Shown here: one piece after another, positions 15,573-15,671 of the stretch | Layout of the letters: each line of letters starts with the position of its first letter | Numbering within the stretch: position 1 is the stretch's first letter | Source of the DNA: a bacterium | GTDB taxonomy: Bacteria > SZUA-79 > Acidulodesulfobacterales > Acidulodesulfobacteraceae | Length of the DNA stretch: 26,480 bases | Assembly (NCBI GenBank): GCA_021813595.1 | Contig: JAKAKF010000258.1 | Span: 1 to 26,480 of the forward strand | Direction of reading: 5' to 3' | Position numbers and translations under genes: made by a program | Notes under the pieces: model-generated | The model's input: the letters and a program-made list of their open reading frames with translations, nothing else | What the model was told of the DNA's origin: nothing | The model's database searches: none

Positions 15573-15608
15573 AAGCGCAAATGGGCGCTTGCGGCAATGA
15601 CGCCGTAA
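15573..15608 (+). promoter_or_regulatory. Tandem hexaloop hairpins in the nifH leader: candidate ANTAR target RNA
   Basis: Hairpin 1 pairs AAGCGC (15573-15578) with GCGCTT (15585-15590) around the 6-nt loop AAATGG. Hairpin 2 follows directly: GCGGC (15591-15595) pairs with GCCGT (15602-15606) around the loop AATGAC. Loop 2 has the A at position 1 and G at position 4 described for ANTAR target RNAs. Loop 1 has the A1 but its G is at position 5. The right arm of hairpin 2 is shared with the terminator stem at 15602-15671, so the two structures exclude each other. The ANTAR protein is encoded at 24759 in the same operon. Confidence 0.6.
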
Positions 15609-15671
15609 TTAGATGGATTTGAGGATTGTGTTTCATCCTTCGTCTCTTTAGTTGCGGCATTTTTTGTTTTT
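15602..15671 (+). terminator. Intrinsic terminator in the nifH leader, exclusive with hexaloop hairpin 2
   Basis: Bases 15602-15613 pair with 15647-15658 in 12 uninterrupted pairs, nine Watson-Crick and three G-U. An inner GGAT/ATCC stem (15615-15618 with 15635-15638) lies within the loop. The U-run 15660-15671 follows directly. The segment TTGCGGC just before the U-run repeats the left arm of hairpin 2 (15589-15595), which explains the mutual exclusion. It sits 31 nt before the nifH ATG and would stop transcription of the whole nif operon unless hairpin 2 is stabilised. Confidence 0.7.

What the first reader, a model, noticed from the sequence alone, without database searches (positions are those of the whole stretch)
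15573..15671. nifH leader is built like an ANTAR antitermination switch
Directly seen: a sigma-54 element (15505-15520), two adjacent 6-nt-loop hairpins, then a 12-bp terminator stem with a U-run 31 nt before nifH. The right arm of hairpin 2 (GCCGTAA, 15602-15608) is also the left arm of the terminator. TTGCGGC occurs twice, at 15589 and 15652, as competing partners. Established: ANTAR regulators stabilise paired hexaloop hairpins with loop A1 and G4. Loop 2 (AATGAC) fits; loop 1 (AAATGG) has its G at position 5, so it is a near match only. Inference: the REC-ANTAR protein encoded at 24759 in the same operon controls read-through into the nitrogenase genes.
Basis: partly seen in the sequence, partly recalled or inferred. 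Interest (0 to 1): 0.85.

Follow-up and report, generated by a model that had tools for sequence, protein, structure and literature searches.

The report
ANTAR-type terminator switch before nifH
In front of the nitrogenase genes of an uncultured bacterium lies a conserved RNA switch that by default should stop transcription, and a regulator protein of the matching RNA-binding type, encoded near the end of the same gene cluster, probably flips it open using an unusual version of a known recognition motif.

Summary
Two abutting hairpins with 6-nt loops (P1, P2) and a terminator that reuses the right arm of P2 lie between a sigma-54 promoter and nifH. All three helices show compensatory changes across 16 leaders. 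The terminator fold is 8-18 kcal/mol more stable than the two-hairpin fold in 16 of 16.

Comparison supports the ANTAR reading. Of 30 family genomes, 16 have an ANTAR domain, one each. The hairpin model has one strong hit, at nifH, in 15 of 30. Sub-lineage g2 keeps the nif operon without the ANTAR gene and without the switch; the tree favours joint loss, one event.

Two amendments. The regulator has its own conserved sigma-54 promoter. The loop-1 mismatch is conserved: position 4 is U in 16 of 16, and the loops are always 11 nt apart. The protein has also lost the aromatic residue matching EutV Tyr164, which stacks on loop G4.

ANTAR control of nitrogenase is already in print, so this is a new variant in a new lineage. 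RNA binding, nitrogen response and kinase are untested.

The parts
15505..15520 (+). sigma-54 (-24/-12) promoter of the nifH operon; predicted start about 15531 (inference)
   Evidence: strict pattern match; strict match also in 14 of the 15 relatives that carry the switch, none within 320 nt of nifH in L051
15574..15589 (+). hairpin P1, five-pair core, loop AAATGG (15579-15584)
   Evidence: both-side changes at 2 of 5 pairs
15590..15607 (+). hairpin P2 (antiterminator), loop AATGAC (15596-15601)
   Evidence: both-side changes at 2 of 6 pairs; G4 in 16 of 16
15602..15671 (+). intrinsic terminator 15602-15658 with U-rich tract 15660-15671; its 5' arm is the right arm of P2
   Evidence: favoured fold in 16 of 16 leaders
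15702..16562 (+). nifH, first gene behind the switch (ATG 15702)
   Evidence: Pfam Fer4_NifH
24731..24746 (+). second sigma-54 site, directly before the ANTAR gene
   Evidence: kept in relatives; outside the preceding gene in L002, L005, L006, L008 and L012, inside its end in the window and L015
24759..25364 (+). REC-ANTAR response regulator, proposed antiterminator protein
   Evidence: PF00072 and PF03861; nearest solved relative EutV 6wsh/6ww6

Best explanation
The nifH leader is a protein-controlled transcription attenuator of the ANTAR kind. Transcription starts at a sigma-54 promoter. Left alone, the RNA folds P1 plus the terminator, and RNA polymerase stops after about 140 nt, before nifH. 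When nitrogen fixation is wanted, the activated (probably phosphorylated and dimeric) REC-ANTAR protein encoded near the end of the nif cluster binds the hairpins and holds P2 closed. That takes the 5' arm away from the terminator, and polymerase reads on into nifH and the genes behind it. The regulator has its own sigma-54 promoter, so it can be present before the switch opens. Shown by comparison: the alternative helices and their conservation, the default terminator fold, one ANTAR protein and one strong target per genome, joint absence in g2, the second promoter. Inferred: binding, direction of control, phosphorylation, nitrogen signal.
For: Compensatory changes in P1, P2 and the terminator over 16 leaders. 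Terminator favoured by 8.4-17.6 kcal/mol in 16 of 16. One ANTAR domain in each of 16 of 30 family genomes, none in 14. One strong hit of the hairpin model per genome, always the nifH leader, in 15 of 30. Same operon order in g2 minus the ANTAR gene, and no switch there; tree favours joint loss. Residues matching EutV R142, K143, K147, K149, E160 and M172 kept. A near-identical P2 (GGC-AAAGGC-GCC or GGC-AACGGC-GCC running into a terminator) before nifH in 15 of 15 leaders of another lineage where an ANTAR gene stands beside nifH.
Against: Loop 1 breaks the published A1/G4 rule (U4 in 16 of 16) and the hairpins abut, whereas shortening the eut linker to 3 nt drastically reduced induction (PMC3369931). 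EutV Tyr164, Arg175 and Arg177 are replaced. Two of five covariation measures, the numbers of further pair types, do not exceed the shuffles (153 and 132 of 500). The structure tested was taken from the window's own fold, which favours it in the slid control. The joint absence is a single evolutionary event. No HisKA_2 kinase in 30 genomes, so the signal path is unknown. No experiment.
Confidence: 0.85

Rival explanations
1. Only P2 is read by the ANTAR protein. P1 is a structural helper, for example stacking end to end on P2 or delaying terminator folding, so this is a one-hairpin form of the ANTAR switch.
For: Loop 1 lacks G4 in 16 of 16 while loop 2 keeps it. The hairpins abut at a fixed 11-nt loop spacing. 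EutV makes more contacts with P2 than with P1 and binds single hairpins (PMC8934654 passages).
Against: Loop 1 is itself conserved (A2 and U4 in 16 of 16) and the P1 stem shows compensatory changes, which a mere spacer would not need. Deleting P1 abolished induction in the eut system (PMC3369931).
Confidence: 0.25
2. The leader is an attenuator, but another factor (a different RNA-binding protein, a small molecule or a small RNA) works it; the ANTAR protein acts elsewhere.
For: No binding data; loop 1 is off-consensus; only about 20 of 48 weak model hits were looked at, so other ANTAR targets are not excluded.
Against: Joint absence of ANTAR gene and switch in g2; single ANTAR protein per genome; no Rfam riboswitch matches here; P2 nearly identical to that of another ANTAR-nifH lineage.
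Confidence: 0.08
3. The stem and U-run are an unregulated, partial terminator or an RNA-stabilising hairpin.
For: A strong stem with a U-run directly before a large operon.
Against: P1 and P2, not only the terminator, show compensatory changes; the shared arm keeps pairing with both partners; loop positions are invariant; the structure is missing where the ANTAR gene is missing.
Confidence: 0.05

Closest known systems
GnfK/GnfR control of nif genes in Geobacter sulfurreducens (Ueki and Lovley 2010: recalled, paper not held; gene names seen in PMC7962754 passages)
   Same: As recalled: a response regulator of the ANTAR kind controls nitrogen-fixation genes by antitermination, together with sigma-54 promoters.
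   Different: No GnfR sequence was compared. In an unnamed order read here in which ANTAR stands beside nifH (which I suspect, without a name, to be the Geobacter group), loop 1 has G4 and the loops are 17-26 nt apart in the 8 of 15 leaders where a 6-nt loop 1 was found. Here loop 1 has U4, spacing is 11 nt, and the ANTAR gene lies near the end of the cluster.
Predicted ANTAR nitrogenase regulon of Pelobacter carbinolicus (Ramesh et al. 2012, PMC3369931; passages and section 10 part 1)
   Same: Dual-hairpin ANTAR RNA elements before nitrogenase-related transcription units.
   Different: There three transcription units; here one target found per genome. No covariation over a lineage or link to one protein is given in the parts I read.
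EutV/EutW of Enterococcus faecalis (PMC3369931 section 7; PMC8934654 passages)
   Same: Two 6-nt-loop hairpins, the second overlapping a terminator; REC-ANTAR protein; several RNA-contact residues kept.
   Different: eut linker 5-12 nt and A1/G4 in both loops; here linker 0-2 nt, U4 in loop 1, and residues matching Tyr164, Arg175 and Arg177 replaced. The HisKA_2 kinase family was not found; that EutW is of that family is recalled.
ANTAR gene followed by nifH in a Clostridiales metagenome-assembled genome (L169, same genome as L072)
   Same: ANTAR protein, dual hexaloop and terminator linked to nifH.
   Different: Both loops fit A1/G4 (AATGGC, AATGAG), loops 21 nt apart, and the element lies before the ANTAR gene rather than directly before nifH.

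Membership tests
ANTAR target RNA (dual hexaloop antiterminator) | Two neighbouring hairpins, each with a 6-nt loop | tested here: met
   Present in the window and 15 relatives, with compensatory changes
ANTAR target RNA (dual hexaloop antiterminator) | Second hairpin overlaps the 5' arm of an intrinsic terminator | tested here: met
   16 of 16 leaders
ANTAR target RNA (dual hexaloop antiterminator) | A1 and G4 in loop 2 | tested here: inconclusive
   G4 in 16 of 16; position 1 is A in 11 and G in 5
ANTAR target RNA (dual hexaloop antiterminator) | A1 and G4 in loop 1 | tested here: not met
   U4 in 16 of 16; position 1 is A in 14 and G in 2. A survey of actinobacteria reports A1/G4 in more than half only (PMC8164766 passages)
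ANTAR target RNA (dual hexaloop antiterminator) | Linker of 5-12 nt (eut) or 2-25 nt (actinobacterial survey) | tested here: not met
   0-2 nt depending on how far the stems are counted; always 11 nt between loops; at the edge of the wider range
ANTAR target RNA (dual hexaloop antiterminator) | Binding by an ANTAR protein | not testable with these tools
   Needs purified protein and RNA
REC-ANTAR response regulator | Receiver domain plus ANTAR domain | tested here: met
   PF00072 E 2.8e-22 and PF03861 E 1.8e-17
REC-ANTAR response regulator | Aromatic residue at EutV position 164 that stacks on G4 | tested here: not met
   H in 32, L in 5 of 37 clade proteins with a readable ANTAR domain, against F in 79 of 79 other homologues aligned
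REC-ANTAR response regulator | Cognate sensor kinase | tested here: inconclusive
   HisKA_2 in 0 of 30 genomes; other kinase families not searched

The most novel reading that the evidence does not exclude
An ANTAR protein and its RNA have shifted their recognition code together. In this lineage the protein has given up the aromatic residue that stacks on G4 (Y/F to H or L), loop 1 has an invariant U4 instead of G4, and the two hairpins are drawn together to a fixed 11-nt loop spacing, while loop 2 keeps G4 and is read through the remaining contacts. The two halves of the dimer would then read two different loops, and searches that demand A1 and G4 in both loops would miss this class of switch.
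Probability: 0.4. Interest if true: 0.65.

Novelty: new variant of a known kind. Interest (0 to 1): 0.55.

Why it matters
It puts nitrogenase of an uncultured lineage under control during transcript elongation as well as at initiation; no NifA above its curated cut-off was found in 30 genomes, although all 30 have lower-scoring matches to that model. It offers a small, testable pair of one protein and one RNA, with a natural sub-lineage lacking both. It also shows correlated departures from the norm in protein and RNA, which could widen searches for such switches.

Tried and rejected
Rfam scans of the window (gathering) and of 15400-15800 (E up to 5): no ANTAR family; a fluoride riboswitch elsewhere and a chance microRNA match.

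Further targets in the family: one search listed 63 matches, 15 strong (E 9.0e-12 or better, all nifH leaders) and 48 weak (best 2.0e-5). I looked at 20 of the 48 (10, 10 regions). By eye, and by a search for GGC followed by five T, none showed a terminator behind the P2 arm. 28 were not looked at, and one search scored 150 of 544-1571 first-look candidates per genome. So 'only nifH' holds for this model and search alone.

Is the switch at nifH elsewhere? The hairpin model over 71 loci of other organisms gave nothing better than E 1. A descriptor scan of 700 nt before nifH in the same 71 gave 7 combinations in 6 loci, none with A1/G4 in both positions of either loop. It missed the L169 element because that lies before the ANTAR gene, further upstream.

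Partner kinase by HisKA_2: 0 of 30, while the control rang in 2 of 14. NifA: 0 of 30 over the cut-off.

G030 exception (ANTAR present, no switch at its nifH): its own complete nif operon lacks ANTAR, and its ANTAR gene sits on a 3.1-kb contig whose nif proteins are closer to g1; I treat it as a binning contaminant, which is a judgement.

Rows dropped: G005 (contig starts inside nifH) from the leader count; L016 (contig starts inside the ANTAR gene) from the promoter count; three of the 120 listed homologues, not over 180 aa, (120 of 634 hits were listed); P0029, whose ANTAR domain is broken off, from the H/L count. In one search, one of 15 leaders gave an 8-nt loop 1 (L204, probably an unrelated hairpin), two gave 7-nt loops (both with G4), four gave none; only the eight 6-nt loops are counted. 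L207 gave no row for residue 164, so 29 of 30 loci. L072 was left out of the tree (only nifH found).

Full report
What is there. Between the divergent nifV-like gene and nifH lies a sigma-54 promoter (15505-15520). About 40 nt after its predicted start come two abutting hairpins with 6-nt loops (P1 core 15574-15589, loop AAATGG; P2 15590-15607, loop AATGAC), then a terminator (15602-15658) with a U-rich tract (15660-15671). The right arm of P2 is the left arm of the terminator. The whole folds better than all 200 shuffles; the two hairpins alone are less striking (8 of 200 shuffles fold as well). A descriptor for this arrangement with A1/G4 in loop 2 finds it once in the window and never in 30 shuffled windows.

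Conservation of the structure. nifH was found in 22 of 30 genomes of the family. The switch precedes nifH in 15 of them, plus the window. Six g2 genomes have nifH without it, and in one genome (G005) the contig starts inside nifH. On the 16 sequences, P1 and P2 pair in 97.2% of cells with both-side changes at 4 of 11 pairs; the ten outer terminator pairs do so in 96.3% with both-side changes at 4. The covariation scores are reached by 0 of 500 shuffles, the number of pairs with both-side changes by 0 and 1 of 500; the numbers of further pair types are reached by 153 and 132 of 500, so that measure says nothing. The slid controls, which keep relatedness, lie far below, but the structure came from one of these sequences, which favours it there. 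The shared arm varies with both partners: where it reads GCCAU (5 rows) the terminator partner is AUGGC and the P2 partner AUGGC, GUGGC or, with a mismatch, UUGGC; where it reads GCCGC or GCCGU (11 rows) the terminator partner is GCGGC, and the P2 partner is GCGGC except in L044 (one mismatch) and L045 (AUGGC, with a wobble). The terminator is the favoured fold by 8.4-17.6 kcal/mol in 16 of 16, so the default should be 'off'.

Who turns it on. The protein at 24759-25364 is a REC-ANTAR response regulator, nearest solved relative EutV. Of 30 family genomes, 16 have an ANTAR domain, one each, and 14 have none. In 10 of the 16 it lies on the same contig and strand as nifH, about 9 kb downstream (coordinates); in the others contigs are broken. 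The hairpin model has one strong match, before nifH, in 15 of 30 genomes. 13 genomes show both parts. Two show the switch but the contig ends before the place of the ANTAR gene (G003, G027), and two show ANTAR but no readable leader (G005, G007). Seven lack nifH, ANTAR and switch, and five g2 genomes have nifH with neither. G030 (g2) has a complete nif operon with neither, and an ANTAR gene on a separate 3.1-kb contig that I take for a binning contaminant. In the two g2 operons compared gene by gene (L133, L134) the order from nifV to the second P-II gene is the same but for the ANTAR gene; a sigma-54-like site with ATGC in place of TTGC remains before nifH in 6 of 6 g2 leaders. In a nifHDKE tree of 13 loci (two from g2) g2 is sister to g6, which has both parts (support 0.975), so joint loss is the simplest history; the outgroups are distant and this is one event.

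An own promoter for the regulator. If the ANTAR gene were made only by read-through it would depend on itself. A second strict sigma-54 site ends 12 nt before its ATG (24731-24746). Among 15 relatives read, 12 have it at -28 to -36, 2 at -84 and -90, and one only with a mismatch. It lies outside the preceding gene in 5 of the 6 relatives checked for this, so it is not a by-product of coding. The predicted start is nearly at the ATG, so the message may be leaderless (inference).

A variant of the code. Published ANTAR RNAs carry A1 and G4 in both loops, with a linker of 5-12 nt in eut (PMC3369931, section 7 and section 10 part 1 read); a later survey of actinobacteria allowed 2-25 nt and found A1/G4 conserved in more than half (PMC8164766 passages). 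Here loop 2 is R-A-H-G-R-C with G4 in 16 of 16, but loop 1 is R-A-D-U-R-D with U4 in 16 of 16, and the loops are always 11 nt apart. For comparison I read nifH leaders in an unnamed order reached through the phylum of Desulfobulbus elongatus. Of 30 ANTAR loci read there, 15 hold nifH; 15 of these 15 have GGC-AAAGGC-GCC or GGC-AACGGC-GCC leading into a terminator, almost the same P2 as here. Where a 6-nt loop 1 was found (8 of 15) position 4 is G in 8 of 8, position 1 is G, and 17-26 nt separate the loops. In a Clostridiales genome the ANTAR element has A1/G4 in both loops and 21 nt between them. On the protein side, EutV Tyr164 stacks on G4 (PMC8934654 passages). The matching residue is F in 79 of 79 other homologues aligned and in 29 of 29 proteins read from that order, but H (32) or L (5) in the 37 readable proteins of this clade. 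Arg175 and Arg177 are also replaced, while R142, K143, K147, K149, E160 and M172 are kept. Protein and loop 1 have thus both departed from the norm in a lineage where loop 2 has not. Cause and effect are not shown.

Known or new. Control of nitrogenase by ANTAR antitermination is not new: Ramesh et al. predicted it in Pelobacter carbinolicus, and I recall it as shown in Geobacter (GnfK/GnfR; paper not held). In the held library, searches on ANTAR, antitermination, nifH, nitrogenase and this lineage listed no report of this switch; the library lacks most subscription papers. New here are the lineage, the comparative evidence, the regulator's own promoter and the divergent pair of loop 1 and protein. 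That the lineage is Ca. Acidulodesulfobacterales is recalled; a paper on that order reports nifDKH expression in acid mine drainage (PMC6776010 passages).

Limits. No binding, no transcript ends, no signal, no kinase. The window's own assembly is not held, and many of the family genomes are in tens to hundreds of contigs, some of which end inside the operon. One search scored only part of its candidates, so more divergent targets could exist. Gene names for nifD, nifE and nifN rest on position and recall; nifH, nifK, the NifX-like protein, the ANTAR protein and the two P-II proteins were scanned against Pfam.

Noticed in passing
window 126-215 (+): Fluoride riboswitch (RF01734, 45 bits, cut-off 34) in front of a membrane-protein ORF at 307 that looks, by eye only, like a hydrogenase/complex I subunit.
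   Followed up: no
window 18196-18220 and 24310-24336: Two near-identical perfect inverted repeats around AGATTTAAAATCT with GGGGAC/GTCCCC arms inside the nif cluster, perhaps copies of a small repeated element.
   Followed up: no
window 24731-24746: A sigma-54 site directly before the ANTAR gene; transcription would start nearly at the ATG, so the message may be leaderless.
   Followed up: partly
L010 (G030 contig C145): A 3.1-kb contig with nifN end, NifX-like, ANTAR and two P-II genes of g1-like identity in a g2 genome that has its own complete nif operon; probably a binning contaminant.
   Followed up: partly
L051 (G021 nifH leader): The one switch-bearing leader without a recognisable sigma-54 site within 320 nt of nifH; its ANTAR gene has one at -84.
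   Followed up: no
L169 (same genome as L072): A Clostridiales genome with a dual hexaloop and terminator before an ANTAR gene that stands upstream of nifH; both loops fit A1/G4.
   Followed up: partly
L173 (about 2990-3060, +) and L176 (minus strand, about 3024-3100): Further A1/G4 dual hexaloops with terminators, both downstream of ANTAR genes and before a protein beginning alike in both, in genomes of the phylum of Desulfobulbus elongatus; function not looked into.
   Followed up: no
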